Positions 19,079 through 34,024 of a stretch of DNA of 35,305 nt are shown piece after piece. The notes beneath the pieces were generated by a model. It was not told the origin of the DNA. It did no database searches and saw only the letters and a program-made list of their open reading frames with translations. Origin of the DNA: an uncultured Pelagibacteraceae bacterium (GTDB lineage Bacteria; Pseudomonadota; Alphaproteobacteria; Pelagibacterales; Pelagibacteraceae); the NCBI GenBank assembly GCA_902577285.1, contig CACGYL010000011.1:1-35305 (forward strand). Reading direction: 5' to 3'. The first letter of the stretch is position 1. Every line of letters starts with the position of its first letter. The translations under genes and the position numbers were made by a program.

Positions 19079-19087
19079 TAAAAATTT

Positions 19088-19423
19088 TTAGCCAGCGCGT
19101 CCTAAATAATTTACCATTATAACTCCTGTTACGATCAGACAAATCCCAATAAAACCATAAACATTCGGTACTTGATTATATTTTAGCATGCCAAAGATTA
19201 CTACTCCTGCTACTGTTAAACCGCTATAAGTAGAGTAACTAAAAGCAACAGGTATTACAGACATTGCTTTTGCTAAAGAAAACATTGTTACAGTCATTAA
19301 TAGTAAGCAAGCAATTGTAGGAGTTAATTTTGTAAATCCTTCAGAAATTTTTGCAAAACTATTCGCTGCTATTCCTGTGGTTATTCCTAAAGCTAATATT
19401 AGATATCCAGTAAATGGTTTCAT
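19088..19423 (-). CDS. SMR (EmrE-like) small membrane protein lacking the family glutamate
   Basis: A 111-residue, four-helix protein. The loop KISEGFTKLTPT aligns without gaps to the EmrE loop KFSEGFTRLWPS, and the end GVIMVNYLGRAG matches the EmrE tail. SMR proteins are dual-topology proton-coupled exporters of cations or guanidinium. Counting back eight residues from the loop Lys, the position of EmrE Glu14 is Gly17 here. The first helix has no acidic residue at all, and the EmrE Trp63 position is Tyr. Normal proton/drug exchange is therefore unlikely; it may be a heterodimer partner or a repurposed paralogue. It is convergent with the Ldh2-family gene, nine bases away. Confidence 0.85.
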   Translation of the reverse strand: MKPFTGYLILALGITTGIAANSFAKISEGFTKLTPTIACLLLMTVTMFSLAKAMSVIPVAFSYSTYSGLTVAGVVIFGMLKYNQVPNVYGFIGICLIVTGVIMVNYLGRAG

Positions 19424-19513
19424 TACATTATTATTTACTTATTTTTATTTATTACAACAGTTGATATGTCTTTATGTACTTGAATTTAATTTAAATTATG
19501 AAGCTAAAAAGAC

Positions 19514-19726
19514 TTAGTTAGACACAAAGTATCCAATAGTGCCTAGGACTATGAAAAACGTTAAAATGAAAATTCTATTCTTTAAAGTTTCTTTTTTTTC
19601 TTTTTGAATAATTCTGAGTTTGAGAGCACTGATATTTACTTTTTGAGGGGTATCAATATTTACGTCACCTGTTAATTGAGAAGAAATTTCAATATCAGAT
19701 GCTCTACTATCTTTATTATAACTCAT
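19514..19726 (-). CDS. Small C-terminally anchored membrane protein, unknown function
   Basis: A 70-residue open frame I do not recognise. The first 45 residues are polar and the stretch from about 30 to 48 is lysine-rich. They are followed by one hydrophobic helix (residues 51-67, FILTFFIVLGTIGYFV) ending in SN, the layout of a tail-anchored or single-pass protein with its bulk in the cytosol. It diverges from the wHTH regulator at 19848, and the repeat pair between them may control both genes. It could be a spurious frame, but its hydrophobicity pattern, position and clean spacing favour a real gene. Confidence 0.55.
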   Translation of the reverse strand: MSYNKDSRASDIEISSQLTGDVNIDTPQKVNISALKLRIIQKEKKETLKNRIFILTFFIVLGTIGYFVSN

Positions 19727-19760
19727 ATGGTTCTATTTAAACACATGTTTAATTTGTAAA

Positions 19761-19818
19761 AATTAATTCTGTGTCCAAAATGGGTTGTGTACAATTAATT
19801 TTATGTCCATTTTGGGTT
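19761..19818. promoter_or_regulatory. Paired 26-bp repeats with CCANNNTGG palindromic cores (candidate operators)
   Basis: Two 26-base direct repeats at 19761-19786 and 19793-19818 match at 21 positions with a period of 32 bases, close to three helical turns. Each contains a small palindrome, CCAAAATGG (19775-19783) and CCATTTTGG (19807-19815), and the two cores are exact reverse complements. Three of the five mismatches are the central AAA/TTT of the palindrome, so the arms are kept. The pair lies between the divergent 70-aa gene and the wHTH regulator, 30 bases upstream of the latter, as expected for an autoregulatory operator. Confidence 0.65.
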
Positions 19819-19847
19819 TAAAATAATAGAATGGTTATCTGTAAAAA

Positions 19848-20780
19848 ATGAATAAAATCCTAAATAATCTCATAAAAAAAAATATTCAAAAATTAATCAC
19901 AGGAAATTTTGAAAAACTTGCCCCAACATACTACAGATTAATATCTGAATGGATGAATTCTTCATATGAAGTTTTTAACGATATAGATAAATATAGGATA
20001 ATACTTTATCTAATAAACAAAGATTTTGAGCACTACATACAAATTAAAAAAATAGAGAGCTATGATAATTTTTTTATGTTTGATAAATCTTTGGAATTAG
20101 ATCGAATTAATATAATAGAAATATCAAAAAATTTAAATATCCCAAAGGAAAGTACTAGAAGAAAAATTCTCGACCTTGAAAAATTAAACGTTCTTCAAAA
20201 AATTGGAAAAAAAATTTATATAGATAGGTCGGCTTATAGACTGGTACAACCTAAAAATACTCTTAAAAATTTGAGCGCATTATTATCAAAAATTTCTGAA
20301 ATATTGAAAATAGAAAATTTAATAGATAAATCTTTAAATGTCGATGAAGTATCAGAGCATTTAAAGGATAACTTTTCATATTGTTGGTATTATTTTTATA
20401 TATTTATTTTTACTTTGACCTTGAGATGGAAAAAGCAATTAGGAGATCTTGAAATTTATTCAGTAGGCATGGTTATAACATGTCACTCAATAGTAAATAA
20501 ATCTTATGAGGGTGTTGGTTTAAATTTTTCAGAATGGAAGAAAGATATGATAAATGTTGAAGAAGGTGGGGTAAATACTATGTCAATTTCTGAGATAACT
20601 CATATTCCAAGACCTACAGTTGTAAGAAAATTGAATTATTTGTTAAAAAATAAATACATTAGCATTAATAAAAAAAAACAATTCACTATAAATATGAAAG
20701 ATCAAGCATTAAGCGATACTATTAAAATTCAAGAACAAAATATCTCTTCTTTGTCAGATTTAGTTTGTAAAATATTTTAA
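19848..20780 (+). CDS. Putative transcription regulator with two winged-helix domains
   Basis: A 310-residue soluble protein that I cannot place in a named family. Two stretches look like winged helix-turn-helix units. The first, at about 90-126, has EISKNLNIPKESTRRKILDL followed by a wing-like KIGKKIYID. The second, at about 246-282, has SEITHIPRPTVVRKLNYLL followed by NKKKQFTIN. They share the spacing I-P-x-x-(S/T)-x-x-R-K-(I/L) and resemble each other, suggesting internal duplication. Each is preceded by aromatic, helix-rich sequence (25-65 and 176-215). No ligand-binding or receiver domain is recognised. The paired palindromic repeats just upstream are a plausible target. The start has no clear Shine-Dalgarno. 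Confidence 0.65.
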   Translation: MNKILNNLIKKNIQKLITGNFEKLAPTYYRLISEWMNSSYEVFNDIDKYRIILYLINKDFEHYIQIKKIESYDNFFMFDKSLELDRINIIEISKNLNIPKESTRRKILDLEKLNVLQKIGKKIYIDRSAYRLVQPKNTLKNLSALLSKISEILKIENLIDKSLNVDEVSEHLKDNFSYCWYYFYIFIFTLTLRWKKQLGDLEIYSVGMVITCHSIVNKSYEGVGLNFSEWKKDMINVEEGGVNTMSISEITHIPRPTVVRKLNYLLKNKYISINKKKQFTINMKDQALSDTIKIQEQNISSLSDLVCKIF

Positions 20781-20789
20781 AAGTAAAAA

Positions 20790-21638
20790 TTAATTAGCTC
20801 TTCGAAGTATAAAAATTAAAGCGAAGCCAGTTAAGTACATTATAAGAGCATATGCTGCTGTTGGTATCATATAAGCAATATCATTAAACATTTGTGTTGC
20901 TACAAACACTGCCAAAGTTCCATTTTGTAAACCACATTCTATCGCAATACATTTTCTTTGCTTCATTCCAGTTGCAAAGAATTTGGCTATATAATAAGCA
21001 AGTATCAACATTACAACATTTAATACTAATACTGCAAAGCCTGCTTGTTTTAAGTAATTAAAAATATTTTCTCTTTCTTCAATCCAAATTGCAGCAAATA
21101 CAATAACGAACAAAGCAGTTGTTATTTTATTAACAATCGAAATATTTGAGGAAATTAAATTATCTGCAAATTTTCTAATAATCATGCCTAAAATTACTGG
21201 CACAGTAACAACCAATGCCATCTTAAGTGTAATCGCTGTCATAGTAATATCTGCTGAGATATTAGTAACACCAAGTAAATCAGCTGATTTTAAAACAATA
21301 AATGGTACCGAAATTATGCTAATTAAACTAATTATTGCAGTTAATGAAATTGACAAAGCCACATCTCCATTTGCAAATTTGGTCATAACATTTGTAGTAA
21401 CGCCCCCTGGTGCAGCAGCAATAATCATAATGCCTAATGCAATCTCTATAGGTAAATTTAATATTAATATTAAAATATATGCAACAATGGGTAAAAGAAA
21501 CAATTGGCATACAAATCCAATCACAAAATCTTTTGGATTATTTATTACCCTTAAAAAGTCTCGTCCAGTTAGACCTAACCCTAGACCTAACATTATAAGT
21601 GCTAAAGCGATTGGAGCTATTTTTGTAACTATTTCCAC
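20790..21638 (-). CDS. Bile acid:sodium symporter (BASS/SBF) family transporter
   Basis: A 282-residue integral membrane protein with about nine to ten helices. The BASS signature APGGVTTNVMTKFANGDVALS lies near 75-95 in two blocks, and ECGLQNGTLAVFVA is the second conserved crossover motif (near residues 233-246). These form the sodium and substrate sites in the ASBT fold. Bacterial members carry organic anions, including pantoate, pyruvate-type acids and perhaps sulfonates; the substrate cannot be read from sequence. It diverges from the Pta-like gene across 63 bases and is convergent with the regulator gene. Its placement among possible C2/C3 acid genes suggests a small organic anion. Confidence 0.88.
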   Translation of the reverse strand: MEIVTKIAPIALALIMLGLGLGLTGRDFLRVINNPKDFVIGFVCQLFLLPIVAYILILILNLPIEIALGIMIIAAAPGGVTTNVMTKFANGDVALSISLTAIISLISIISVPFIVLKSADLLGVTNISADITMTAITLKMALVVTVPVILGMIIRKFADNLISSNISIVNKITTALFVIVFAAIWIEERENIFNYLKQAGFAVLVLNVVMLILAYYIAKFFATGMKQRKCIAIECGLQNGTLAVFVATQMFNDIAYMIPTAAYALIMYLTGFALIFILRRAN

Positions 21639-21701
21639 TTTTTATCCTTATACTATATTTGTTATATTAGTTTTTTAATCATTTTAGTATATATAAATTT
21701 A

Positions 21702-22613
21702 ATGCTTTCAGATAAATCAACAGTTTGTCCACTTAATTTATTAGATATTGCTCATCAAAAGAGAGGAATTAAAGCTGCAATTGTGAATGCTGGTAAGGAG
21801 CTACCAATGCTCTCCGTTATGGATGCCGTTAAAGAAAAATTAATAGTTCCTGTTTTGATCGGTGATGAGGGGGAAATTAAAAAGATAGCTGAAGAATTAA
21901 AATTTGATATTTCTGATTATGAAATTGTTGATGAACCAATTGAAAATAATACTGCTAAAGTTGCTGCTAAACTAGCAGGCGATGGTGATGTGAAGATTAT
22001 AGTCAAAGGTCATATACATACTGATGTGTTAATGAAAGAAGTTTTGTTAAGAAAATATAACTTAATAGGAAAAACTAGATTAAGCCATATTTGGCATATG
22101 ACATTGGATAAAGAAGACGATCCTCTAATAATTACTGATGGTGCATTAAATGTTAATCCTAATGTCAAAACAAAAATGCATATTTTAAAAAATGTTATAG
22201 ATTTTTGTCACAGAATAAAAATTGCAAGACCTAAAGTTTCTATTTTGTCAGCCACAGAGGAAGTTTTAGATAGTATGCAAAGTTCTGTTGATGCTAAGGA
22301 AATTTGTAGATTGGCAAGCAAAGAAAATTTTAACGCAGATATATTTGGCCCACTAGCGTTTGATAATAGTGTTTCTAAAAAATCTGCAACTATTAAAGGA
22401 ATTAAAAATGAAGTTGCAGGAGATGCAGATGTTTTATTAGTTCCAAATGTAGAGGCTGGAAACGCTTTAGTAAAGATGATGATATATTTTATGGGAGCTT
22501 GTGCAGCTGGTGTAGTTGTTGGTGGTAAAGTCCCTGTTGTAATAACAAGTAGATCAGATGATGCGACAGCAAGACTAGCCTCAATTGCTGCAGCTGTGGT
22601 AGCTTTAGATTAA
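21702..22613 (+). CDS. Phosphate acetyl/butyryltransferase family enzyme
   Basis: A 303-residue PTA_PTB domain protein, which exchanges CoA and phosphate on an acyl group. Recognisable parts are KGHIHTDVLMKEVL (about 107-120), LIITDGALNVNPN (145-157), the GPLAFDNSVS segment (near 222-231) and VPNVEAGNALVKMMIYFMGA. Domain length resembles phosphate butyryltransferase or the short Pta of Alphaproteobacteria. In taurine pathways Pta turns Xsc-derived acetyl phosphate into acetyl-CoA, and this gene may have that role. It has no Shine-Dalgarno, and a TATATAAAT element lies within ten bases of the ATG, so a leaderless mRNA is possible. A HisD-like gene follows 42 bases later. Confidence 0.87.
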   Translation: MLSDKSTVCPLNLLDIAHQKRGIKAAIVNAGKELPMLSVMDAVKEKLIVPVLIGDEGEIKKIAEELKFDISDYEIVDEPIENNTAKVAAKLAGDGDVKIIVKGHIHTDVLMKEVLLRKYNLIGKTRLSHIWHMTLDKEDDPLIITDGALNVNPNVKTKMHILKNVIDFCHRIKIARPKVSILSATEEVLDSMQSSVDAKEICRLASKENFNADIFGPLAFDNSVSKKSATIKGIKNEVAGDADVLLVPNVEAGNALVKMMIYFMGACAAGVVVGGKVPVVITSRSDDATARLASIAAAVVALD

Positions 22614-22655
22614 ATGAATATTGAAAAAAAATAATAATTAAATTAGGATTTAAAT

Positions 22656-23942
22656 ATGGCAATAACTTATTTGAAAAAATCACCAAAAACTTCATCAACT
22701 GACGATACAAAGACCAGAGAGATTGTTGAAAATATTCTTAAAGATATTGAAAAAACTAAAGAAGAAGGATGTATCGAATTATCAAAAAAATTTGATAAAT
22801 ATGAAGGTGAAGTAATTGTTACGAGAGAAAAAATTGAAGAAATTAAAAAAAATTTAGATCCTAAGACAAAAGATGATATTCAATTTTCTCATGAAAGAGT
22901 AAGAAAATTTGCTGAAGCACAATTGAAAAACTATGGTCAGGATTTTGAAGTAGAGTTATCAGATGGTTTATATGCTGGGCAAAAATTAATTCCAGTTAAT
23001 ACTGCAGGTTGTTATGTTCCTGCTGGAAGATATGCACACATAGCATCAGCTGTGATGAGTGTAACAACAGCAAAGGTAGCAGGTGTAAAAAATATTATTG
23101 TTTGTAGTTCTCCAAAACCAGGTGTGGGTGTTCATCCTGCGATAGTCTATACTGCGGATTTATGTGGCGCAGATGTAATAATGAATTTAGGCGGTGTGCA
23201 AGCTATTGCTGCAATGACTTATGGTCTTTTTGGAAACGCGCCTGCGGATATGCTTGTAGGCCCAGGTAATCAATTTGTTGCAGAGTCAAAAAGAATTCTG
23301 TTTGGAAAAGTTGGGATTGATTTATTTGCAGGTCCTACAGAAATCGCTGTGATAGCTGACGACACAGCTGATCCAGAATTAGTTGCTTTTGATTTAGTTG
23401 GACAAGCAGAGCATGGATACAATTCTCCAGCTTGGTTATTTACGACTAGTAAAAAACTTGCTGAATATGTCATGCAAAGAGTGCCAGAGCTTATTGCAGA
23501 TCTGCCAGATTTACCAAGAGAAAACTCGGGCGCTGCTTGGAGAGACTATGGTGAAGTTATTCTGTGCGATACGGATGAAGAAATGGCTAAAATAAGTGAT
23601 GAATATGCCCCTGAACATTTAGAAATTCAAACTAAAAATCTTCAATGGTTCCATGACAGATTAAAAAATTATGGATCATTATTTATTGGAGAAGAGACAA
23701 CAGTTGCTTATGGAGATAAATGTTCTGGTACAAACCACATTTTGCCTACTAAAGGAGCAGGAAAATATACTGGTGGTTTGTTTGTTGGAAAATTTATTAA
23801 AACATTAAGTTTTCAAAGAATGACTAAAGAGTCTACAAAAGAAGTGGGTGCAGCATGCGCGAGAATTTCAAGATATGAAGGCATGGAAGCTCATGCAAGA
23901 ACTGGGGATGTAAGACTAAGAAAGTACGGATTTCAAAATTAG
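22656..23942 (+). CDS. Histidinol dehydrogenase-family oxidoreductase, probable sulfopropanediol 3-dehydrogenase (HpsN-like)
   Basis: A 428-residue zinc/NAD dehydrogenase of the HisD fold. All metal and catalytic positions are present in order: GQAEHG (Gln/His ligands), APEHLE (catalytic Glu/His), the Asp of AYGDKCSGTNHILPT, and the His of EGMEAHART. It has none of the histidine-biosynthesis neighbours. Features such as EHGYNSPAWL and GKFIKTLSFQRMTKEST fit the non-biosynthetic branch that includes HpsN, which oxidises 2,3-dihydroxypropane-1-sulfonate to sulfolactate. That assignment is from pattern memory and context; other vicinal diols or amino alcohols are possible. The start is supported by an AGGA Shine-Dalgarno. 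It is convergent with the EamA gene. Confidence 0.8.
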   Translation: MAITYLKKSPKTSSTDDTKTREIVENILKDIEKTKEEGCIELSKKFDKYEGEVIVTREKIEEIKKNLDPKTKDDIQFSHERVRKFAEAQLKNYGQDFEVELSDGLYAGQKLIPVNTAGCYVPAGRYAHIASAVMSVTTAKVAGVKNIIVCSSPKPGVGVHPAIVYTADLCGADVIMNLGGVQAIAAMTYGLFGNAPADMLVGPGNQFVAESKRILFGKVGIDLFAGPTEIAVIADDTADPELVAFDLVGQAEHGYNSPAWLFTTSKKLAEYVMQRVPELIADLPDLPRENSGAAWRDYGEVILCDTDEEMAKISDEYAPEHLEIQTKNLQWFHDRLKNYGSLFIGEETTVAYGDKCSGTNHILPTKGAGKYTGGLFVGKFIKTLSFQRMTKESTKEVGAACARISRYEGMEAHARTGDVRLRKYGFQN

Positions 23943-24882: not shown

Positions 24883-25932
24883 TTAAATTCTACTTCCGTT
24901 TTCATCAAATATAAAAATATCTTTAGTATCAAATCTAAGCTCATTTTGAAAATCAATTTGACTAGAAATTTTTGCACTAAGCTCTAAATTATCATTACTC
25001 ATATAAACTATCTTTTCATTTCCTAAATTTTCTACTAATTCAATTTTAGGTTTGAACTTAAATTTAGATTCATTTGATACATTAAAATGTTCGGGTCTTA
25101 TTCCAATAAAATATTTACTTTTATCAAAATTAATTTTTTCAAAGGTAATTTCGTTCCCTAAAAAGTTAATTTTATTATCTGAAATAATATTTTCACTATT
25201 TAATGGTAAAATATTCATTTTTGGTGTTCCAATAAATTGAGCAACAAAAATATTTGATGGATTATTGTAAATTTCATCAGGTGTTCCGACTTGCTCTATA
25301 TTTCCAAGATTTAATATTACAATTCTATCAGCTAAAGTCATTGCTTCTACTTGATCATGGGTAACATAAATCATATTGGTTTTGATTTGGTTATGAAGCT
25401 TTGAAATTTCTACTCTCATCTCAGCTCTTAAAGCTGCATCCAAATTAGATAATGGCTCATCAAATAAAAATATTTTAGGATTTCGGGTAATTGCACGTCC
25501 AATGGCAACTCTTTGCCTCTGACCTCCAGATAATTGCTTGGGTTTTCTTTCAAGTAATTCCTCTATTTTTAAAATTTTAGCTGCTTGCATAACTTTTGTT
25601 TCAATTTCTTCCTTAGATTTCTTTTCAATCTTAAGTCCAAATGACATGTTCTCATAAACATTCATGTGTGGATAAAGAGCATAAGATTGAAATACCATTG
25701 CAGTTTGTCTTTTTGAGGGATGAAGATCATTAATTTTTTGATCATTTATAAATATTTCGCCCTCATCAATTTTTTCTAAACCTGCTATCATTCTTAATAA
25801 AGTTGACTTTCCACATCCAGATGGACCAACTAATACAAGAAATTCGTCATCTTTTCCCATCAGGTTAAAATCAGTTATAATCTTGTTTGATCCAAAAGAT
25901 TTATGAACGCCTGTGAATTTTATATTTGCCAT
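24883..25932 (-). CDS. CUT1-type (MalK/UgpC) ABC transporter ATPase
   Basis: A 349-residue ATPase. Walker A GPSGCGKST is at 36-44, the Q-loop FQSYALYPHM at 81-90, the signature LSGGQRQR at 134-141, Walker B IFLFDEPLSNLD at 154-165 and the switch His at 192. A C-terminal TOBE/OB domain (about 235-349) with GIRPEHFNV confirms the MalK/UgpC class rather than the TauB class. No other CUT1 ATPase is nearby. It is therefore the likely energiser of the binding protein and two permeases encoded on the other strand at 30183-33362. It is separated by one base from the upstream SnoaL-like gene. Confidence 0.92.
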   Translation of the reverse strand: MANIKFTGVHKSFGSNKIITDFNLMGKDDEFLVLVGPSGCGKSTLLRMIAGLEKIDEGEIFINDQKINDLHPSKRQTAMVFQSYALYPHMNVYENMSFGLKIEKKSKEEIETKVMQAAKILKIEELLERKPKQLSGGQRQRVAIGRAITRNPKIFLFDEPLSNLDAALRAEMRVEISKLHNQIKTNMIYVTHDQVEAMTLADRIVILNLGNIEQVGTPDEIYNNPSNIFVAQFIGTPKMNILPLNSENIISDNKINFLGNEITFEKINFDKSKYFIGIRPEHFNVSNESKFKFKPKIELVENLGNEKIVYMSNDNLELSAKISSQIDFQNELRFDTKDIFIFDENGSRI

Positions 25933-25933
25933 T

Positions 25934-27019
25934 TCAACTTTTAACTTTTTCTAAAATATCTATGCCTATTTGTTTTAAAATATGAAGTATATCAATTGGT
26001 ACCCAATTTTCACGGATTTTTCCTTCATCATGGTGATAAAAATCCATAACTCTCATTGTTAGTTTTTGATTATTTGCAGTAAAACCTAACCAATCATTTG
26101 AACCATAATAAGCCTCTAAACTGTGCCAACCAGCACATAAAGAAAATTTACCATCCCCTATTTCACAATAATGACCAAGTTTGAAATAATCTCTTTCAGT
26201 AAATGATTTTCTAAATGGCAACTGATGCATATCAATAAAACCCTCTAAAGATCTTGAGGTGCCTATCCCACATGGTCCATACCATATCATTTTGTCATGC
26301 CAATATTCTCTTTGAGGATGATCTATTAATCTTTTTTTTAATTCTTCATCAGATAGGTTCTCTATTTCAGGTTTAAAATTAAGACTTCTATTCATTGAAA
26401 GAGCTTGTCTCAAACTTGAATTTGAAATTTCAATATCTTTTTCAAAAAAATTTACACTATCAGTATTTATTGGGGGTAACCAGGCTCCTTCAGATCCTCT
26501 CGATGGATTGATTGGAAAAATACCACATTGTCTTAAGAAATCTATAACATCAATTAATATATGGCTTTCTACTATTTTGTCTTCTTTAAGTTCATGTATT
26601 TCACAACATCTGAGATTAATCATTTTAAAATTTGGTTTAATCCCTAACCATGACTTTTTAAAGTATCCAGATAACGTTGAGTATGACCCTACTAAAATTT
26701 TATCCCTAAAAGCTCCCCCTACTACAATGTTTTCTCTTCTTTCTAAATCTGGGAAGGCTTCTAATAATGGTGTCCAGAGCTTCTCTTTTAAATTTTTTAT
26801 TCCAACAAACTCATTTAAAGGATGAAAACAATTGACCTTTACATCATTTATAAATGCCTTATCTATACTTTTATCTATTTCTTTTAATCCAAAATTTACA
26901 ATTTGATTTAAATAGCTTCTAATTAAATTTTTATTTCGAAAATTTTGCTCTGGTGAAAGAACAATATCTTTAACGTTTGTTTTGGTTTTAAGTCCTGTAT
27001 CAAATTGCTCTATTTGCAT
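25934..27019 (-). CDS. Two-domain SnoaL/NTF2-like protein (A)
   Basis: A 361-residue cytosolic protein with two SnoaL-like (ester-cyclase/NTF2-fold) domains. The first covers about residues 25-165, with a YFKKSWLGIKPNFKMINLR strand and a DKIVESHILIDVIDFLRQCG end. The second covers about 210-357, ending EGKIRENWVPIDILHILKQIG. The repeated phrase of the form K-I-x-E-x-W/H-x-x-x-D-x-x-x-x-L-x-Q-x-G marks both domains. SnoaL-fold proteins act as cyclases, isomerases, hydrolases or binding proteins, and no reaction can be given. It is the first gene of the minus-strand operon, diverging from the bicupin gene, and pairs with the similar protein at 28016. Confidence 0.8.
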   Translation of the reverse strand: MQIEQFDTGLKTKTNVKDIVLSPEQNFRNKNLIRSYLNQIVNFGLKEIDKSIDKAFINDVKVNCFHPLNEFVGIKNLKEKLWTPLLEAFPDLERRENIVVGGAFRDKILVGSYSTLSGYFKKSWLGIKPNFKMINLRCCEIHELKEDKIVESHILIDVIDFLRQCGIFPINPSRGSEGAWLPPINTDSVNFFEKDIEISNSSLRQALSMNRSLNFKPEIENLSDEELKKRLIDHPQREYWHDKMIWYGPCGIGTSRSLEGFIDMHQLPFRKSFTERDYFKLGHYCEIGDGKFSLCAGWHSLEAYYGSNDWLGFTANNQKLTMRVMDFYHHDEGKIRENWVPIDILHILKQIGIDILEKVKS

Positions 27020-27071
27020 ATATTTATTTATTGGAAATATTCGTGTATCACAATATTATAATTAAAAAAAT
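27020..27071. promoter_or_regulatory. Divergent promoter region of the SnoaL/cupin/CUT1 cluster
   Basis: This 52-base AT-rich spacer separates the two divergent operons that together make one transporter and its enzyme set. Both promoters must overlap here or reach into the coding starts, so joint regulation is expected. The imperfect TATTTATTTATTGGAAATATT stretch is weakly symmetric. No -35/-10 pair is clear by eye. Confidence 0.4.
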
Positions 27072-28016
27072 ATGAATATTAGACTTGCTAAATTTGAAGA
27101 CTTAACTCCTAGTACTTTACCCTTTGTTGAAGGTAAATTGAAAGGTCATAAAGAGAGAAAAAATTATTCTATTTTAGGGCCAGGTGTTGCTGAAGATGCA
27201 AATCAATCAATAAAAATATCAGAGCCACATGGATTTAACTTGGGTGCTGTTTCTGCAAAACCCTTAAATGGTTCTGGACTTCATAGCCATTTGACTGCTG
27301 AAGTATTCATAATTTATTCAGGTAAATGGAGGTTTTATTGGGGTTCTAAAGGTGAAGATGAGACAATATTAAATCCGGGCGATATTATATCTATGCCAAC
27401 AAATATGTTTAGAGCATTTGAAAATGTAGGAGATGAGGAGGGTTTTATTTTTGTTGTTCTTGGTGGAGATGATCCTGGAATTGTAACTTGGATACCTGAA
27501 GTTCTAAAAAAAGCTAAACAAACTGGTATGGCGCTATTAGATGATAATTCTTTGATTGATTTAAACAATCAAGATATTCCAAATGGTAGAAAATTACTTG
27601 ACCCTATATCAAAGGATGAGATTACAAAATTTGATAATTATAAACTAGAACAATTACAAAAAAATATATGCGAGACTAACAAGAGACTTGAAAATGAAAG
27701 GAATATTGGAAAAAATGTTAAAATTTCACATATTTTAGGAAACAATTTTCAAAACAAAACAATAACTCCAATTATAAAACAAGATACAGGATTTAGCTTA
27801 TGCACTTTTAAATCTACAATAGGAAGAGTTGAAAATCTAAAATTTGATAAACCTACAATTTTTTTTTCACAAAAAGGGAAATGGAACATTGAGACGGACA
27901 ATTCTTCCATTGAATTAGATTATAAAGATACATTTTCAGTTCCAGTTGGATCTAACATTAGCATTAAAATTGAAGAAAAAAATGAGTCACTTCTTAATTG
28001 TGTATCACAAATATAA
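27072..28016 (+). CDS. Bicupin-like protein
   Basis: A 314-residue protein with a clear cupin domain at about residues 52-145. The first metal motif is GLHSHLTAEVFIIYSGKW (H-x-H-x-x-x-E). The second motif is GDIISMPTNMFRAFEN, where the usual metal histidine is replaced by Arg. A second, weaker cupin-like half spans about 235-314 (FSQKGKWNIETD, then FSVPVGSNISI) and has no histidines. Bicupins include dioxygenases, isomerases and demethylating enzymes. With one ligand lost, the metal site may be non-standard. The stop codon overlaps the next gene's start (TAATG), so the two are coupled. Confidence 0.8.
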   Translation: MNIRLAKFEDLTPSTLPFVEGKLKGHKERKNYSILGPGVAEDANQSIKISEPHGFNLGAVSAKPLNGSGLHSHLTAEVFIIYSGKWRFYWGSKGEDETILNPGDIISMPTNMFRAFENVGDEEGFIFVVLGGDDPGIVTWIPEVLKKAKQTGMALLDDNSLIDLNNQDIPNGRKLLDPISKDEITKFDNYKLEQLQKNICETNKRLENERNIGKNVKISHILGNNFQNKTITPIIKQDTGFSLCTFKSTIGRVENLKFDKPTIFFSQKGKWNIETDNSSIELDYKDTFSVPVGSNISIKIEEKNESLLNCVSQI

Positions 28017-28984
28017 TGAAAGGTTTTGATAAGAAATACAAAGACTTTCCTGACTATATATTAAAAATAACTGAGCAAATTTGGGAAGGTAAAGATGTTG
28101 AGTCTATCAGTAAATTTTATACAAAAGATATACCAGTAAGATCACCATTTGGAGTTACTTATGGCAATAAACCAGTTATAGACGCAACATATGCAACTTT
28201 AAAAGAATTTCCTAACAGACAATTGTTAGGTGAGGATGTTATTTGGAATGGTAATGACGAAATTGGATATCACTCTTCCCATAGAATATTAAGTAAAGGA
28301 ACACACCTAGGTGATGGTTTTTATGGAAAGCCCAGTGGAAAAGATATTTATTATAGAGTAATTGCAGATTGTGCATGTAAAGAAAATCAAGTTTATGACG
28401 AGTGGATTGTTAGAGATCAAGGAGCGATGGTAAGACAGATTGGTTACTCTCCAAAAGAATTTGCAAAGAAAATAATTGAAAGTGAAGGGGGAATTTCAAC
28501 TGCATCCAGGTTATTCGATTTTGAAACTGATAAAAGTTCAAATTATGAAGCTGAGATATATAAAAAAGGGTCAAAAGCTGAAAAATATACAGAGATACTT
28601 AAAAATATTTTTAATTATAACTATAAATTTGAAGGATATGATAGAGCAGCTAATATTTTTTGGCCAGGAAATAAAATTGGCCATGGAAGAGAGGTTATTA
28701 AAGAAAAATGGAATTCTCTAAAAGTAATATTTTCAAACATAAAATTTACTATAGAACATGTAGGTTTTTTAGAGGAAGTAGGTCAAAACCCAAGAATATC
28801 AGTTAGATGGTTTTTAGAAGGTACTCACAGTAACAACAGTATGGATTTTGATAAAGCTTCAAATAAAAAAATATTTATAATGGGAATTAATCATGCAGAA
28901 TTTTACTCCAACTCTATTATAAGGGAGTGGGTATTATTTGATGAAGTTGCTATATGGAAACAAATTTTATTAAATCATGGTTAA
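28016..28984 (+). CDS. Two-domain SnoaL/NTF2-like protein (B)
   Basis: A 322-residue protein starting at the ATG at 28016, which overlaps the bicupin stop in TAATG. An ATG 18 bases upstream lies inside the bicupin gene and is less likely. The first SnoaL-like domain is about residues 10-145 (RSPFGVTYGNKPVIDATYATL; DEWIVRDQGAMVRQIG). The second is about 180-320 (ISVRWFLEGTHS; NSIIREWVLFDEVAIWKQ). The two-domain layout mirrors the divergently encoded protein A, although identity is low. The reaction is unknown. Its last eight bases overlap the start of the MetE-like gene, so both are made together. Confidence 0.78.
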   Translation: MKGFDKKYKDFPDYILKITEQIWEGKDVESISKFYTKDIPVRSPFGVTYGNKPVIDATYATLKEFPNRQLLGEDVIWNGNDEIGYHSSHRILSKGTHLGDGFYGKPSGKDIYYRVIADCACKENQVYDEWIVRDQGAMVRQIGYSPKEFAKKIIESEGGISTASRLFDFETDKSSNYEAEIYKKGSKAEKYTEILKNIFNYNYKFEGYDRAANIFWPGNKIGHGREVIKEKWNSLKVIFSNIKFTIEHVGFLEEVGQNPRISVRWFLEGTHSNNSMDFDKASNKKIFIMGINHAEFYSNSIIREWVLFDEVAIWKQILLNHG

Positions 28985-30104
28985 AATAAAAACCACACAT
29001 GTCGGAAGCCTACCCAGATCAAATGAACTCTCAAGTCTTTTAGCATCAAAAGATAATAAAGAAGAAATAAGCATAAAAAAATTTGACGAAGTTGTAAGAA
29101 ATAATGTTTTAGAAGTTGTAAAAAAACAGATTGATACAGGAATTGATATAGTAAGTGACGGAGAAATGTCAAAAATTAGTTATGCAACATATATTAAAGA
29201 TAGAGTTGAAGGTTTTTCAGGAGAAAGTGAAAGAAAAGCTCCAAAAGATTTAGATGATTTTCCATCTTTTAAAAAAAAACTTATACAATCTGGTGGAACC
29301 CCAACATATAAAAGACCATGTTGCACAAGTGAATTAAAATTAAAAGATAATGTTTCGATTAGTAAAGATATTGTTAATTTTAAAGATGCATTAAATAAAA
29401 ATTCTCATAGTGACGGGTTTATGAATTCTCCATCACCAGGAGTTATTTGTAATTTTCTACCTAATAAATTTTATAAAAATGACGATGAATATTTAGAAAA
29501 GCTCTCAGATATTTTGAAATTTGAATATGAAAAAATTATTAATAGTGGTCTTTCTCTTCAAATCGATTGCCCTGACCTAGCTCTATCAAGGCATATGATT
29601 TATAAGGACTTTTCAGAGGAAAATTTTTTAGAAAGGGCAAACAAACATGTCGAGGTTTTAAATAAGTCATTAGAAAATATTGATCCAGCCAAAGTAAGAA
29701 TGCATATTTGTTGGGGAAATTATGAAGGACCTCACACTCACGATATTGAATTAAATAAAATTATTGAGATAGCTTTTAAAGCTAACATAAATATGTATTT
29801 GATAGAGTCTGCTAACCCTAGGCATGCTCATGAATGGGAAGTATTTGAAAATATAAAACTACCAAAAGATAAAATTATTATTCCAGGAGTAATAGAGTCC
29901 ACGAGTAATTTTATTGAACATCCAGATGTTGTAAAACATAGAATTTTAGCCTTTTCTAAAGTAATTGATTCTAGCCAATTAATGGCCGGCACTGATTGTG
30001 GATTTAGCACATTTGCCGGATTTGGAAATGTTGATGAAAATATAGTTTATAAAAAACTTGAGTCACTTGTGATTGGATCAGGACTTGCGTCAAAAGTGAT
30101 TTAA
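28977..30104 (+). CDS. MetE C-terminal-like (UROD/MetE superfamily) methyltransferase
   Basis: A 375-residue protein resembling only the catalytic half of cobalamin-independent methionine synthase. The N-terminal TTHVGSLPR and GIDIVSDGEM segments are the family opening. The zinc ligands are likely H-x-C in VRMHICWGNYEGPH (about 240-253), the Glu of ESANPR and the Cys of AGTDCGFSTF near the C-terminus. The folate-binding N-terminal half of MetE is absent, as in the archaeal and epoxyalkane:CoM/methyl-transferase relatives. Such enzymes move methyl or alkyl groups to or from a zinc-bound thiol. Here it probably demethylates the imported compound or handles a thiol adduct; both substrate and acceptor are unknown. 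Confidence 0.82.
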   Translation: MVKIKTTHVGSLPRSNELSSLLASKDNKEEISIKKFDEVVRNNVLEVVKKQIDTGIDIVSDGEMSKISYATYIKDRVEGFSGESERKAPKDLDDFPSFKKKLIQSGGTPTYKRPCCTSELKLKDNVSISKDIVNFKDALNKNSHSDGFMNSPSPGVICNFLPNKFYKNDDEYLEKLSDILKFEYEKIINSGLSLQIDCPDLALSRHMIYKDFSEENFLERANKHVEVLNKSLENIDPAKVRMHICWGNYEGPHTHDIELNKIIEIAFKANINMYLIESANPRHAHEWEVFENIKLPKDKIIIPGVIESTSNFIEHPDVVKHRILAFSKVIDSSQLMAGTDCGFSTFAGFGNVDENIVYKKLESLVIGSGLASKVI

Positions 30105-30182
30105 AAATCTCTTTTATTAGATAATTCTTAAAGATATAGTTTTTATTAGAATAATTATAAACAACCAAAAAAGAGAGAAAAT

Positions 30183-31409
30183 ATGAGAAAAATACTATTA
30201 ACCTTATTGTTCATGCTTTTTGGAACAACGGCATATGCTGATGGGCATTGCAGTAAACCAAGCGGTTCAATAAATATTTTAGCAAATGATTTTCCAGCAT
30301 TAAGAACATTTGTAGAAACAGCTAAAGGATGTAAAGGAAGTGCAGATTTTAAAGTAACTCACTCATCAGAACACAACAAAATTGCTGTTCCAGCTTTAAC
30401 TGCAAACCCTTCTGAATTTTCAGCAAGAATTGCAGCTAATAGTTCAATTGTTCCTTTAATGAATCAAGATTTAATTAGACCTATGGATGATCTAGTTAAA
30501 AAATATGGAAAAGGAATACAAGACTCCCAATTAATAACAATTGATGGAAAAGTAATGGCTGTTGCTTTTATGGCAAACACTCAACATTTGTATTACAGAG
30601 AAGATGTTTTAAAAGAATTAGGTATACCTGTACCTAAAACTTACGAAGAAGTTGTTGCTGCATCTGAAAAAATAAGAGCATCAGGTAAAATGCAACATCC
30701 GTATGCAGCTGCGTATAAAGCTGGATGGAATTTAGCTGAAGAATTTGTAAACATGTTCATTGGTCATGGTGGTGAATTCTTTAAAGCTGGAACTGCTGAA
30801 CCAAATATCAATAATGCAAAAGGTGTGGCTACACTGAACATGCTTAAAAAGTTAGCAAGTTTAAGTAACCCAGATTATCTTACTCACGATAGTGAAGCAA
30901 TCAAAGTTGAATGGGAATCTGGAAAAGTTGCTCTTATGACATTATGGGCATCAAGATCTGGAACTTTATTAGATGATGAGGGTGATGCAAAAATTACTGC
31001 AGCAACTAAATTAACTGGACCAGCAACCGTTGGTGGAGGAAATATTCCTGCAGCTACATTATGGTGGGATGGATTTACTTTAGCAAAAAATAGATCTGAC
31101 AGTGATGCAGAGGCAACTTTTATAGCTCTAGCTCATGCTGCTTCAAATAAAAAAATGGTTGCAGATGCTGCTGACCAAGCTGTTTGGTTAGTTGAAGGTT
31201 TTGTACCAGGACCAAAATCTATTGGTGTGATTGAAGCTGTAAAAATGGGAGCAAAACCTTACCCGATGTTACCACAAATGGGTTTGATGCATGGTGCATT
31301 AGGAAGTGAAATAGTTGAGTTCTTACAGGGTAAAGAGTCTGCAGAACAAGCATTGAAAGATGTTGAAGCTGCTTACATCAGTAAAGCTAAAGAACAAGGC
31401 TTTCTATAA
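30183..31409 (+). CDS. Extracellular solute-binding protein, family 1 (CUT1 type)
   Basis: A 408-residue binding protein with a signal peptide (about residues 1-19, cleavage after AYA). The family-1 hinge regions include MAVAFMANTQHLYYREDVLKELG in two blocks, with the P-x-T-Y-E-E-V linker, and later LMTLWASRSG and TLWWDGFTLAKN. It would bind a small polar solute in the periplasm. Tryptophans in the cleft region (W286-W287 area) could stack on a sugar ring or cage a quaternary amine. The preceding GAGAGAAAAT acts as Shine-Dalgarno. A hairpin follows directly, as after tauA. The ligand is not known. Confidence 0.9.
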   Translation: MRKILLTLLFMLFGTTAYADGHCSKPSGSINILANDFPALRTFVETAKGCKGSADFKVTHSSEHNKIAVPALTANPSEFSARIAANSSIVPLMNQDLIRPMDDLVKKYGKGIQDSQLITIDGKVMAVAFMANTQHLYYREDVLKELGIPVPKTYEEVVAASEKIRASGKMQHPYAAAYKAGWNLAEEFVNMFIGHGGEFFKAGTAEPNINNAKGVATLNMLKKLASLSNPDYLTHDSEAIKVEWESGKVALMTLWASRSGTLLDDEGDAKITAATKLTGPATVGGGNIPAATLWWDGFTLAKNRSDSDAEATFIALAHAASNKKMVADAADQAVWLVEGFVPGPKSIGVIEAVKMGAKPYPMLPQMGLMHGALGSEIVEFLQGKESAEQALKDVEAAYISKAKEQGFL

Positions 31410-31419
31410 AAATAAATAT

Positions 31420-31446
31420 TTAAGTGGGGATTTAATCCCCACTTAA
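31420..31446 (+). terminator. Hairpin between the binding-protein and permease genes
   Basis: Stem TTAAGTGGGGA (31420-31430) pairs with TCCCCACTTAA (31436-31446) around five bases, followed by TTTT. It lies 10 bases after the binding-protein stop. It is only six bases before the permease ATG, so it may both attenuate transcription and hide the permease ribosome-binding region. Confidence 0.85.
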
Positions 31447-31452
31447 TTTTAA

Positions 31453-32481
31453 ATGCCAAATAAAACTTTTTTCTGGTTTTTTTTGCCAACTGGTTTGGCA
31501 ATGATTTTGTTTATTGGTTTGCCAATAATATCTACTGGTATCCAATCTTTTTATGCCCAACATGATCAAGTAGTAAAAGAAGTTAAGAAATGCGATCCTT
31601 TTGGCTGTACAGTTTCAATAGTTGTTGATCAAGAAGCAACTTCAATATTAAGAGATGAAAAACCTTTAGGTAAATTTAACGGATTTGGTACTTATATAGA
31701 TAGAAATCACTTAGCTATTGAGCAAATTTCAGATTTTTGGAAAGAAACTGACTCCTTTGGAGAATTTATCAATCAGGTTACTAATTTACCTTTTTACAAA
31801 GCTCTTTTATTTACTTTAACTTATTGTTTATTTGTAACTCCCAATGTTTTATTGCTAGGTTTCATTATTGCGTTAAGTTTAAATGCAATATCTAGAAAAA
31901 TAAGAGGCCCATTAATATTTGGTACAATATTACCAATGATAGTTACTCCATTAGTAGGATCCCTTGTTTTATTTTGGATGATTGATGCAGAGGGAATTAT
32001 TGGAGCAAATTTACAATTAATGATGGAAGATCCATATCTATCATTAAAATCATCTAGAACGCTTACATGGATAACTATAATTATCTATGGAATTTGGCAT
32101 CATTCTCCTTTTGCTTTTGTAGTTTTTTATGCTGCATTACAAACAGTACCTCAAGAACCTGTCGAGGCAGCAATTATCGATGGAGCGTCAAGATACCAAA
32201 GAATTAGACATATTGTGTTACCACATATTTATCCGGTTGTTACTTTTGTAGCTTTAATATCATTAATGGACAATTTTAGAGTCTTTGAGCCAATAATTGG
32301 TTTTAGCGCTGAAGGAAGTGCTCAATCTTTATCATGGTTAATCTATGATAATTTAGTCAATGAAGAAGTAATCTTATTTGGTTCTGCAGCAGCAACTTCT
32401 ATGATGACTATTATTGGTATAGCCATATTGTTAGCACCAGTATTAATTAGGACTTGGAAAGAATTTAGGACGGCAAGATAA
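31453..32481 (+). CDS. CUT1 ABC permease 1 (MalF/UgpA type) with periplasmic insertion
   Basis: A 342-residue permease. The first helix (about residues 7-31) is followed by an unusually long loop, residues 33-112. The loop contains the pair CDPFGC (C47 and C52), which could form a disulfide outside the membrane, as in MalF-like P2 loops. Five further helices follow, with the EAA loop VEAAIIDGASRYQRIRHIVL at about 238-257. The ATG has no Shine-Dalgarno and sits right behind the hairpin. The stop overlaps the next gene in TAATG. It forms the channel together with permease 2. Confidence 0.9.
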   Translation: MPNKTFFWFFLPTGLAMILFIGLPIISTGIQSFYAQHDQVVKEVKKCDPFGCTVSIVVDQEATSILRDEKPLGKFNGFGTYIDRNHLAIEQISDFWKETDSFGEFINQVTNLPFYKALLFTLTYCLFVTPNVLLLGFIIALSLNAISRKIRGPLIFGTILPMIVTPLVGSLVLFWMIDAEGIIGANLQLMMEDPYLSLKSSRTLTWITIIIYGIWHHSPFAFVVFYAALQTVPQEPVEAAIIDGASRYQRIRHIVLPHIYPVVTFVALISLMDNFRVFEPIIGFSAEGSAQSLSWLIYDNLVNEEVILFGSAAATSMMTIIGIAILLAPVLIRTWKEFRTAR

Positions 32482-33362
32482 TGGAATATGGTTTAGACAA
32501 AAGATCAAATGCACTTAAAACATTTAACACAACTTTTATAATCATTTGGTTATTAATTGCATGCTTTCCATTCATTTGGACTTTTTGGGGATCATTTAAA
32601 GTAAGAGCAGATTTTTTTTCTAGAGCTGATTGGTGGTATGCGATCTCAGCATTTAATACGTTATTAGAAACAGGAGGTCAATTTACTTCAAAAGCATATT
32701 CTGAAGCCTGGACTGAAGGTGAATTTTGGAAAGCATCGAGAAATACGATAATAGTAACAGTATTTGTTGTCTCTATATCACTTTTTTTAGGAACTTTAGG
32801 TGCTTATGCTTTATCTAGATCTACTGAAAGATATGCTTTTTGGATATTAATTGCAGCATTAATTTTTAGAGCAATGCCACATATAACACTAGTCTCAGGA
32901 TATCTTTTTCCATTTTTTGAATTACAGATTTGGGGAATTTTACCAACCACAATTGTGGTTTTAGTTGCAATAAATCAACCCTTTACTTTATGGCTACTTT
33001 ATTCTTTTTTTAAAACCGTACCTAAAGAATTAGATGAAAGTGCTTTAATTGATGGTTGCTCATATTTTCAAGCATTTAGGTATATAATCATGCCCGTAAT
33101 GTGGCCTGGAGTTATTACAGCTGGTTTGTTTAGTCTAATGTTGGCTTATAATGACTTTACAGTTACTGCATTATTATTAAATCAAGAAAACCACACAATG
33201 GTCCCAAAAATTCAAAGTTATCTTGGTACAAATCAGCACGAAGGTAATTTGATGTGGGCTGTTTCAGCAGTTGTGTCAGCAACCGCACCATTATTTATGT
33301 TAGTCATGTTTTTTCAAAGACAAGTAATAAGTGGCTTAACTACTGGTGCTGTTAAAGGATAA
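32481..33362 (+). CDS. CUT1 ABC permease 2 (MalG/UgpE type)
   Basis: A 293-residue permease with six membrane helices. The EAA coupling loop is LDESALIDGCSYFQAFRYII (about 180-199), and the FIWTFWGSFK motif follows helix 1. The early loop between helix 1 and 2 carries a segment rich in aromatic and acidic residues (DWWYAISAF; AYSEAWTEGEFWKAS) of the MalG type. Both junctions are TAATG overlaps, so it is translationally coupled to permease 1 and to the HAD-like gene. With the ATPase at 24883 it completes the importer. Confidence 0.92.
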   Translation: MEYGLDKRSNALKTFNTTFIIIWLLIACFPFIWTFWGSFKVRADFFSRADWWYAISAFNTLLETGGQFTSKAYSEAWTEGEFWKASRNTIIVTVFVVSISLFLGTLGAYALSRSTERYAFWILIAALIFRAMPHITLVSGYLFPFFELQIWGILPTTIVVLVAINQPFTLWLLYSFFKTVPKELDESALIDGCSYFQAFRYIIMPVMWPGVITAGLFSLMLAYNDFTVTALLLNQENHTMVPKIQSYLGTNQHEGNLMWAVSAVVSATAPLFMLVMFFQRQVISGLTTGAVKG

Positions 33363-34024
33363 TGGCAATTAAAGCCATACTATTTGGTTCTATTGGTACT
33401 ATAGTTGAAACATCTAATATTCAAAGAAATTGCTTTAATTTAGCTTTTAAAATCTCAGGATTAAAATGGCATTGGAGTAAAGTATTGTATCAATCTATGT
33501 TAAAAAAATCTGGCGGGGAAAAAAGAGTAAAAAAATTTAGTCTAGAGAAAAAAACGTTAGTTAATGCAAAAAAAATTAGAAATTTAAAAACTTTTATTTT
33601 TAATAATTTTTTAAAAAAGAATAAATTAAAGCCACGTACTGGAGTAATTGATGTGATCAAATATTGTAAAAAAAATAAAATAAAAATTGGCTTTGTAACC
33701 TCAACTACAAAAAATAATGTTGATGCAGTATTTATATCATTAAATAAATATATAAAAAAAAGAGATTTTGATTACATCGGACATGACAAAATTATAAAAA
33801 ACTTTAACAACAAGACAGATATTTACTTACATTGTCTAAAAAAATTAAAACTTTCGAATAAAAATTGTTTAGCAATTGAAGACACAGAGATCAGTTTGAA
33901 ATATGCTAAAAAAGCTAAACTCAAATGTATTGCATTCCCGGGCGATTTTCACCGCTCCGGGAAGTACAAGGATTCATTTATAAAAGTTAGACGGCTTAAC
34001 TCAAAAATATTTGCTGATTTATAG
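33362..34024 (+). CDS. HAD-fold protein without the catalytic aspartates (probable pseudophosphatase)
   Basis: A 220-residue protein with the overall layout of CbbY/Gph-type haloacid dehalogenase-superfamily hydrolases. In place of the nucleophile motif D-x-D-G-T it has FGSIGTIVET. Gly9 replaces the nucleophile Asp and Ile11 the acid/base Asp. The rest of the fold is recognisable: motif II in GFVTSTTKNN (about 112-121), a Lys near 140, and the motif IV-like LAIEDTEISLKYAKKA near 177-192. It is basic overall. Phosphatase chemistry is not expected; it could be a binding or regulatory protein. It overlaps the permease 2 stop by one base and the pseudoazurin stop, on the other strand, by six. Confidence 0.8.
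   Translation: MAIKAILFGSIGTIVETSNIQRNCFNLAFKISGLKWHWSKVLYQSMLKKSGGEKRVKKFSLEKKTLVNAKKIRNLKTFIFNNFLKKNKLKPRTGVIDVIKYCKKNKIKIGFVTSTTKNNVDAVFISLNKYIKKRDFDYIGHDKIIKNFNNKTDIYLHCLKKLKLSNKNCLAIEDTEISLKYAKKAKLKCIAFPGDFHRSGKYKDSFIKVRRLNSKIFADL

What the first reader, a model, noticed from the sequence alone, without database searches (positions are those of the whole stretch)
24883..34024. Divergent CUT1 transporter cluster with SnoaL pair, bicupin and MetE-like methyltransferase: candidate undescribed uptake/catabolic system
One complete importer is split over two divergent operons (ATPase on minus; binding protein and two permeases on plus). It is interleaved with five soluble proteins of non-standard families: two double SnoaL-like proteins, a bicupin with a lost metal ligand, a MetE-C-like methyltransferase and a HAD pseudoenzyme. 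Tight overlaps (TAATG three times, an 8-base overlap once, a 1-base gap once) show they are made together. No sugar kinase, isomerase or glycosidase is present, so the solute is probably not a simple sugar. The methyltransferase points to a methylated substrate (N- or S-methyl osmolyte or alkaloid-like compound) demethylated in the cytosol. Gene families are established; the substrate idea is inference.
Basis: partly seen in the sequence, partly recalled or inferred. Interest (0 to 1): 0.78.

Follow-up and report, generated by a model that had tools for sequence, protein, structure and literature searches.

The report
Undescribed SAR11 uptake and breakdown operon
A set of nine neighbouring genes in an abundant ocean bacterium looks like the trimmed-down form of a widespread bacterial gene set that seems to import an unidentified small molecule and take it apart, probably passing a methyl group to homocysteine to make methionine.

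Summary
Window 24883-34024 carries a complete CUT1 importer and five soluble genes with the stated overlaps. All nine genes occur in 47 of 58 SAR11 loci; contig ends explain 9 of the 11 gaps. The set looks like the streamlined form of a wider operon. Fuller versions in Roseobacters, SAR116 and other Alphaproteobacteria add a HisD-family dehydrogenase, an SDR, a LacI regulator, an alpha/beta hydrolase, an RraA- or HpcH-type enzyme and more SnoaL proteins; distant forms occur in Actinomycetota, Deinococcus, Pantoea and Priestia. My literature searches found no description. The MetE-like protein keeps all four zinc ligands (13 of 13), and its orthologue co-occurs with the SnoaL gene across 385 genomes. 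In other lineages it is absent from the stretches read, and the 8 loci with an amidase or C-N hydrolase never have it. A methylated substrate is plausible for SAR11 but does not define the system. The neighbouring HpsN is a DHPS-type enzyme in a locus that SAR11 non-carriers share, distinct from the operons' own HisD family. The substrate is unknown; a polar hydroxy-acid or polyol-like compound fits best.

The parts
24883..25932 (-). CUT1-type ATPase (UgpC/MalK-like, 349 aa)
   Evidence: NF008653 UgpC subfamily 459 bits, cut-off 432
25934..27019 (-). Sno1: double-SnoaL-domain protein (361 aa)
   Evidence: PF07366 E 4.7e-19, two stretches; conserved in SAR11 and distant loci
27020..27071 (.). 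52-bp divergent intergenic region between the two operons
   Evidence: sequence read
27072..28016 (+). Bicupin (314 aa); HxH...E kept, Arg in place of motif-2 His
   Evidence: model pLDDT 88.2, bicupin fold as in oxalate decarboxylase and quercetinase
28016..28984 (+). Sno2: double-SnoaL-domain protein, 322 aa from ATG 28016
   Evidence: model pLDDT 86.8; best PDB matches are SnoaL-fold proteins
28977..30104 (+). MetE-C-like zinc methyltransferase (core type, no folate domain, 375 aa)
   Evidence: PF01717 E 9.6e-15; invariant H243, C245, E277, C341 in 13 of 13
30183..31409 (+). Solute-binding protein, family 1
   Evidence: PF01547; profile's best PDB match 5iai 'Sugar ABC transporter' E 3.8e-21
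31453..32481 (+). CUT1 permease A
   Evidence: PF00528
32481..33362 (+). CUT1 permease B
   Evidence: PF00528
33362..34024 (+). HAD-like protein without the catalytic aspartates
22656..23942 (+). HpsN-type DHPS dehydrogenase; neighbour, probably not part of the ancestral operon

Best explanation
The nine genes are the streamlined SAR11 form of a widespread catabolic operon that I could not find described. SHOWN: the transporter, the SnoaL pair, the bicupin and the MetE-like gene are inherited together within SAR11, and their homologues sit together in fuller operons of other bacteria. INFERRED: the CUT1 importer brings in a polar, oxygenated small molecule that is not a simple sugar. The SnoaL-fold proteins and the bicupin rearrange or cleave its carbon skeleton. 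The MetE-type zinc enzyme moves a methyl (or other alkyl) group from the substrate or a product to homocysteine, yielding methionine. In fuller operons a HisD-family and an SDR dehydrogenase oxidise the core, an alpha/beta hydrolase and an RraA or HpcH/HpaI enzyme cut it to central metabolites, and LacI regulates. The SAR11 cluster lacks those genes and must rely on other enzymes, possibly the adjacent HpsN.
For: All nine genes in 47 of 58 SAR11 loci. Sno2 in 15 of 197 family genomes and a strong MetE-like match (340 bits or more) in 15 of 197, 14 shared; G152's contig breaks inside Sno2 and G131 has only part of MetE. Across 385 class genomes, 21 of 24 genomes with a strong Sno2 match also hold the MetE orthologue and one genome has the orthologue alone (Fisher 2e-30, which ignores relatedness; cut-offs set after seeing the gaps; in G270 and G280 the two lie on different contigs). 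Nearly the same gene order on Ruegeria, Octadecabacter and Marinovum plasmids. Zinc ligands invariant 13 of 13. In one variant a TRAP transporter replaces CUT1 and SnoaL.
Against: No substrate, activity or expression is shown. No MetE was found in the stretches read of Paracoccus, Vibrio and Actinomycetota forms, so the core pathway does not need it. SAR11 lacks the operon's HisD type (0 of 16 SAR11 genomes searched), and LacI and RraA relatives are in 0 of 64 SAR11 loci, SDR in 1 of 64 at 28% identity; the SAR11 pathway may differ or end early. Four SAR11 carriers (L158, L161-L163) have no close ATPase beside the cluster. SnoaL and cupin folds cover many chemistries and some non-enzymes.
Confidence: 0.55

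Rival explanations
1. The operon handles a capped hydroxy acid of the tetronate/pantoate type. In amidase-bearing clusters the cap is an amide, in MetE-bearing clusters a methyl group. HisD turns the terminal CH2OH into a carboxylate, SDR oxidises the 2-hydroxyl, and the RraA/HpcH enzyme decarboxylates or cleaves the product.
For: The TRAP binding protein of variant L149 best matches 4p47, 4pdh, 4nq8 and 4p9k. A paper on the related IseP took ten solved homologues (4P47 the closest): two open, three with sugar acids, the rest with pantoate or erythronate (passages of PMC11668362; which entries hold which ligand is only recalled by me). One Ensifer cluster has genes annotated 3-oxo-tetronate kinase and aldolase. 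MetE in 30 and amidase or C-N hydrolase in 8 of 51 loci, 0 both.
Against: The paper warns that most of those ligands were co-purified; three of the ten homologues bind sugar acids. Does not explain up to five SnoaL proteins or the cupin. SAR11 lacks the operon's HisD type. An amidohydrolase-family gene lies beside the MetE-bearing Ruegeria operon and an arginase-family gene beside L115, so C-N enzymes in a wide sense are not wholly exclusive.
Confidence: 0.2
2. The cluster serves uptake and breakdown of DHPS or another sulfonate, together with the neighbouring taurine, ComC, Pta and HpsN genes.
For: HpsN lies within the locus in 51 of 58 SAR11 loci, median 3.2 kb from Sno1. The window HpsN matches sulfopropanediol 3-dehydrogenase 8v35 at E 7.5e-161 and keeps the sulfonate His (His126 role from passages of PMC11382572).
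Against: Six of six non-carrier SAR11 genomes examined have the same tau-ComC-Pta-HpsN locus without the cluster. The operons' HisD-like proteins lack the His in 44 of 44 rows and stand outside the SAR11 HpsN clade.
Confidence: 0.12
3. The main benefit is methionine: the MetE-like protein is a folate-independent methionine synthase fed with methyl groups from the imported compound, in a group reported to lack MetE and MetH.
For: [quoted passage not shown] In the window's genus one search reported no MetE-fold match other than this protein. Zinc ligands intact.
Against: One search also shows that other genera of the same family have frames of about 750-780 aa with weak matches, the length of full MetE, so the lack of MetE is not general in the family. 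MetH was not searched. Roseobacter carriers have other methionine synthases (recalled, not tested).
Confidence: 0.15
4. An ordinary sugar or polyol importer next to unrelated hitchhiking genes.
For: The SBP's nearest solved relatives are named sugar, trehalose/maltose and sorbitol binding proteins; SBP and permeases are more conserved than the soluble proteins in SAR11.
Against: The same soluble families accompany CUT1 genes in three phyla: Pseudomonadota, Actinomycetota and Deinococcota.
Confidence: 0.06

Closest known systems
CUT1 (UgpABCE/Smo/polyol-type) ABC importers
   Same: UgpC-type ATPase, two distinct permeases, family 1 binding protein
   Different: Operon carries SnoaL, bicupin and MetE-like genes and no recurring kinase, isomerase or glycosidase
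Core (folate-independent) methionine synthases MesA-D (PMC7857596, passages)
   Same: MetE catalytic domain alone with H/C/E/C zinc ligands
   Different: Embedded in a catabolic operon; far below every NCBIfam methionine synthase cut-off (best 98 bits against 406); MesX not found in 14 carriers, though the control was silent
DHPS catabolism (HpsN/HpsO/HpsP)
   Same: HisD-family plus SDR dehydrogenases in the fuller operons
   Different: Operon HisD lacks the sulfonate-recognition His (0 of 44 rows)
SnoaL/NTF2 polyketide cyclases and hydrolases (SnoaL2, AclR, Lsd19)
   Same: Fold and PF07366 match
   Different: Double-domain proteins, several per operon, in loci with transporter and dehydrogenase genes rather than polyketide synthases
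Bicupins (oxalate decarboxylase, quercetin dioxygenase)
   Same: Bicupin fold, VIA Z about 21-23; seed vicilins score about the same
   Different: Arg instead of the motif-2 His; 8-17% identity

Membership tests
CUT1 ABC importer | MalK/UgpC-type ATPase with C-terminal extension | tested here: met
   349 aa; UgpC subfamily 459 bits over cut-off 432, matched over residues 1-347
CUT1 ABC importer | two permeases and family 1 SBP in the same cluster | tested here: met
   PF00528 twice, PF01547
CUT1 ABC importer | carbohydrate or polyol substrate | not testable with these tools
   no binding assay
Core methionine synthase (MetE C-domain) | Zn ligands His, Cys, Glu, Cys | tested here: met
   H243, C245, E277, C341 invariant in 13 of 13; the four residue types are those named in PMC12478193 (passage); their positions in MetE are recalled
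Core methionine synthase (MetE C-domain) | no N-terminal folate domain | tested here: met
   375 aa; PF01717 spans residues 5-345
Core methionine synthase (MetE C-domain) | methyl transfer to homocysteine | not testable with these tools
   -
MesD | MesX (PF08908) in the genome | tested here: inconclusive
   0 of 14 carriers, but 0 of 14 control genomes rang
SnoaL family | PF07366 above cut-off and SnoaL fold | tested here: met
   (fold tested for Sno2 only)
SnoaL family | cyclase, hydrolase or isomerase activity | not testable with these tools
   -
HpsN (DHPS 3-dehydrogenase): window 22656-23942 | His126-equivalent in the GRYxH motif | tested here: met
   GRYAH, aligned with 8v35
HpsN (DHPS 3-dehydrogenase): operon HisD-like proteins of relatives | His126-equivalent | tested here: not met
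   0 of 44 rows from 40 loci; Met, Leu or Ile there
HAD phosphatase | catalytic DxD | tested here: not met
   reads GSIG (once GAIG) in the window and the homologues printed
Cupin metal site | HxH(x)3E of motif 1 | tested here: met
   H71, H73, E77 invariant 13 of 13
Cupin metal site | motif-2 His | tested here: not met
   Arg114 in 13 of 13

The most novel reading that the evidence does not exclude
An undescribed 'cap and core' pathway found in several phyla: one shared core (HisD-like, SDR, bicupin, hydrolase, aldolase, SnoaL set) degrades a family of natural products whose caps differ, and lineages swap the decapping enzyme: an amidase or C-N hydrolase in some, a MetE-type homocysteine-dependent demethylase in others. 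In SAR11, reported to lack known methionine synthases, the demethylase would turn a dissolved methylated compound directly into methionine. A methoxylated cyclitol such as a mycosporine-type sunscreen is one speculative substrate.
Probability: 0.25. Interest if true: 0.82.

Novelty: new variant of a known kind. Interest (0 to 1): 0.6.

Why it matters
SAR11 is among the most abundant bacteria in the sea (general knowledge), and here 15 of 197 sampled genomes of its family (14 of 77 high-quality ones) carry the Sno2 marker of an uptake system of unknown substrate with its own enzymes. Naming the substrate would add a compound to the surface-ocean carbon budget. If the MetE-like enzyme demethylates it, that would be a folate-independent route to methionine in organisms reported to depend on outside sources. 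The fuller operon sits on plasmids of cultured Roseobacters, so it is open to direct genetics.

Tried and rejected
DHPS or taurine pathway membership: rejected as the main reading because six of six non-carriers examined share that locus and the operon's HisD family differs. MesD/MesX: not decided (silent control). Mycosporine-type substrate: kept only as speculation; amidase clusters lack MetE although such compounds carry a methoxy group (general knowledge), and searches listed no title on their catabolic genes (12 of 392 and 10 of 729 papers shown). Literature on the operon: 0 papers; 8 listed, none on this operon by title; 0 papers; searches also listed no title describing it. Paralogous MetE-like genes in seven other Alphaproteobacteria (L142-L144, L146-L148, L150) showed no shared neighbours that explain function, judged by eye. 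Profile search of the bicupin against solved sequences gave only weak hits. Fold searches name folds, not functions; families absent from those lists are not excluded. Foldseek's top hit for Sno2, Lsd19, covers both domains but at TM 0.32.
Full report
WHAT IS THERE. The window lies in a SAR11 genome (G000, 933 kb, 58% complete; its nearest named relatives are Pelagibacteraceae single-cell genomes). Searches confirm the gene list: UgpC-type ATPase and a double-SnoaL protein (Sno1) on the minus strand; bicupin, a second double-SnoaL protein (Sno2), MetE-C-like protein, binding protein, two permeases and a HAD-like protein on the plus strand. Sno2 most likely starts at the ATG at 28016, where homologues outside SAR11 begin.

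CONSERVATION IN SAR11. A scan with Sno2 gave 64 loci, 58 of them Pelagibacteraceae. All nine genes are found in 47 of 58; in 9 of the other 11 a contig end explains the gap, leaving one locus without HAD and one without the ATPase. Median identities to the window are 94, 91 and 94% for SBP and permeases, 93% for the ATPase, 79-85% for the cupin, SnoaL and MetE-like proteins and 69% for HAD. In 197 genomes drawn from the family, 15 have Sno2, 14 of them among the 77 high-quality genomes. A strong MetE-like match (340 bits or more) is also in 15, 14 shared. The two mismatches are G152, whose contig breaks inside Sno2, and G131, which shows part of MetE only. Four carriers (L158, L161-L163) have no close ATPase gene beside the cluster in the fetched stretch.

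THE WIDER OPERON. Sno2 homologues occur in 29 of 385 genomes drawn from the class at E 1e-20, 24 of them above 390 bits in 17 families, the window's own included. Named plasmids show the fuller form: ATPase, SBP, two permeases, SnoaL proteins (up to five), HisD-like dehydrogenase, SDR, LacI, Sno2, bicupin, MetE-like, alpha/beta hydrolase and RraA family protein. Ruegeria conchae and Octadecabacter have all of these; the coral Ruegeria lists no RraA, Marinovum no SDR, Paracoccus no MetE. More distant forms, with Sno2 29-33% identical to the Ruegeria protein, lie on plasmids of Deinococcus, Pantoea, Priestia, Roseibium and Alloyangia; Pantoea and Priestia show MFS transporters instead of CUT1. 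Actinomycetota (L074, L078), an unnamed bacterium (L075) and SAR116 (L077) also have it.

MetE AS A MEMBER. A MetE profile over 385 class genomes with the same handles shows a gap between 626 and 594 bits. Taking matches above the gap plus one fragment in the same cluster (G284), 21 of 24 Sno2 genomes have it and only G211 has it without Sno2 (Fisher 2e-30, which ignores kinship; the cut-offs were set after seeing the gaps; in G270 and G280 the two genes are on different contigs). Of the three exceptions, G425 has a more divergent copy at 557 bits, 65 bases from its Sno2; G542's contig ends after the cupin and no copy was found elsewhere; G388 (64% complete) lacks it between cupin and RraA. 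The four zinc ligands are invariant in 13 of 13 rows. Ser11, Glu63 and Asp197, which I recall as matching homocysteine-binding positions of MetE, are also invariant. SAR11 is reported to lack MetE and MetH (PMC12478193, passages). In one search the window's genus showed no MetE-fold match other than this protein, but other genera of the family showed frames of about 750-780 aa with weak matches, the length of full MetE.

MODULES. G211 (L149) has a TRAP transporter followed by HisD-like, SDR, LacI, bicupin, MetE-like, hydrolase and RraA, with no CUT1 or SnoaL in the stretch and no Sno2 in the genome at the cut-off. A Vibrio pelagius plasmid shows the reverse, CUT1 plus four SnoaL proteins only. 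The L149 TRAP binding protein is 72% identical to one next to a Roseibium cluster. Its closest solved relatives are 4p47, 4pdh, 4nq8 and 4p9k. Of ten solved homologues of the related IseP (4P47 the closest), two are open, three hold sugar acids and the rest pantoate or erythronate, with the warning that most ligands were co-purified (PMC11668362, passages). Over 51 loci, 30 have MetE, 8 have the amidase or C-N hydrolase, 0 have both and 13 have neither. Some loci come from one genome (L136 and L145; L129 and L131), stretches are short and sometimes cut, and amidases were sought by similarity to those already seen. Against a clean split, an amidohydrolase-family gene lies beside the Ruegeria conchae operon and an arginase-family gene beside L115, both MetE-bearing.

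THE HpsN NEIGHBOUR. Window 22656-23942 is a DHPS-type HpsN: E 7.5e-161 to 8v35, with the GRYAH motif whose His recognises the sulfonate (PMC11382572, passages). In the tree, 20 SAR11 HpsN rows form one group (100/100), apart from true HisD and from the 44 HisD-like operon rows, which do not form a single group; the HpsN group lies beside the largest of them, and some long branches make details unsure. The sulfonate His is Met, Leu or Ile in 44 of 44 operon rows. The operon's HisD type was not found in the 16 SAR11 genomes searched, 10 carriers and 6 not; they show HpsN and true HisD, the window's incomplete genome HpsN alone. LacI and RraA relatives are in 0 of 64 SAR11 loci and SDR in 1 of 64 at 28% identity. 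Six of six non-carriers examined have the tau-ComC-Pta-HpsN locus without the cluster, so adjacency is positional. In one carrier lineage, however, that His is replaced in an Asn-Asn motif: 7 of 14 carriers and 0 of 40 non-carriers read (55 family genomes looked at, one non-carrier without a readable motif), plus three named carriers, L048, L049 and L076. The four such rows in the tree form one clade, so this may be a single event. It hints that HpsN was adapted to a new substrate there.

FOLDS. Sno2 modelled at pLDDT 86.8: Foldseek's best hit is the double-domain epoxide hydrolase Lsd19 (E 1.0e-9 but TM 0.32); VIA's best include AclR (Z 16.8, rmsd 2.4 over 133) and SnoaL2 (Z 16.4, rmsd 1.9 over 128), first domain only. 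The bicupin modelled at 88.2 resembles oxalate decarboxylase (Z 23.1, rmsd 3.5, 245 aligned), seed vicilins (Z 21.9, rmsd 3.5, 243 aligned) and quercetin dioxygenase (Z 21.2, rmsd 2.9, 228 aligned) about equally. These give folds, not functions.

MECHANISM. Shown: gene content, linkage, conserved residues. Inferred: import by CUT1; skeleton chemistry by SnoaL and cupin; methyl transfer to homocysteine by the MetE-like enzyme; oxidation and cleavage by HisD-like, SDR, hydrolase and RraA/HpcH enzymes where present. The substrate class (polar hydroxy acid or polyol-like, capped by a methyl or an amide) rests on the TRAP kinship, the tetronate-kinase gene annotated in one Ensifer cluster and the lack of recurring sugar-pathway genes; it is a guess of moderate strength.

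VERDICT. A real, conserved system for which searches found no description.

Noticed in passing
L048, L049, L076, L161-L163 and family genomes G069, G101, G109, G123, G146, G158, G172: HpsN in the same genomes as the cluster has Asn-Asn where the sulfonate-recognising His belongs; seen only in cluster carriers among those read, one clade in the tree.
   Followed up: partly
L175 (Marinovum algicola plasmid) 17361-23241; L171 4635-6032: Genes annotated SBP56 lie near the clusters; in Marinovum they are followed by genes annotated DMSP demethylase DmdA and other DMSP breakdown proteins.
   Followed up: no
L149 1958-11680: Variant operon with a TRAP transporter instead of CUT1 and without SnoaL genes.
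   Followed up: partly
L158, L161-L163: SAR11 carriers with no close ATPase gene beside the cluster in the fetched stretch; the importer may share an ATPase encoded elsewhere.
   Followed up: partly
L116, L120, L124: A GMC oxidoreductase gene lies within or near the operon (Pfam for L120 and L124; similarity for L116).
   Followed up: no
L115 16860-19060: Kynureninase-like and arginase-family genes directly follow the MetE-like gene.
   Followed up: no
window 14985-16910: TauC-like permease of 641 aa, with a long N-terminal part before the recognisable permease region (read by eye).
   Followed up: no
L168 14531-16386: Ensifer cluster carries genes annotated 3-oxo-tetronate kinase and aldolase next to the SnoaL, HpcH-type aldolase and hydrolase genes.
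   Followed up: partly
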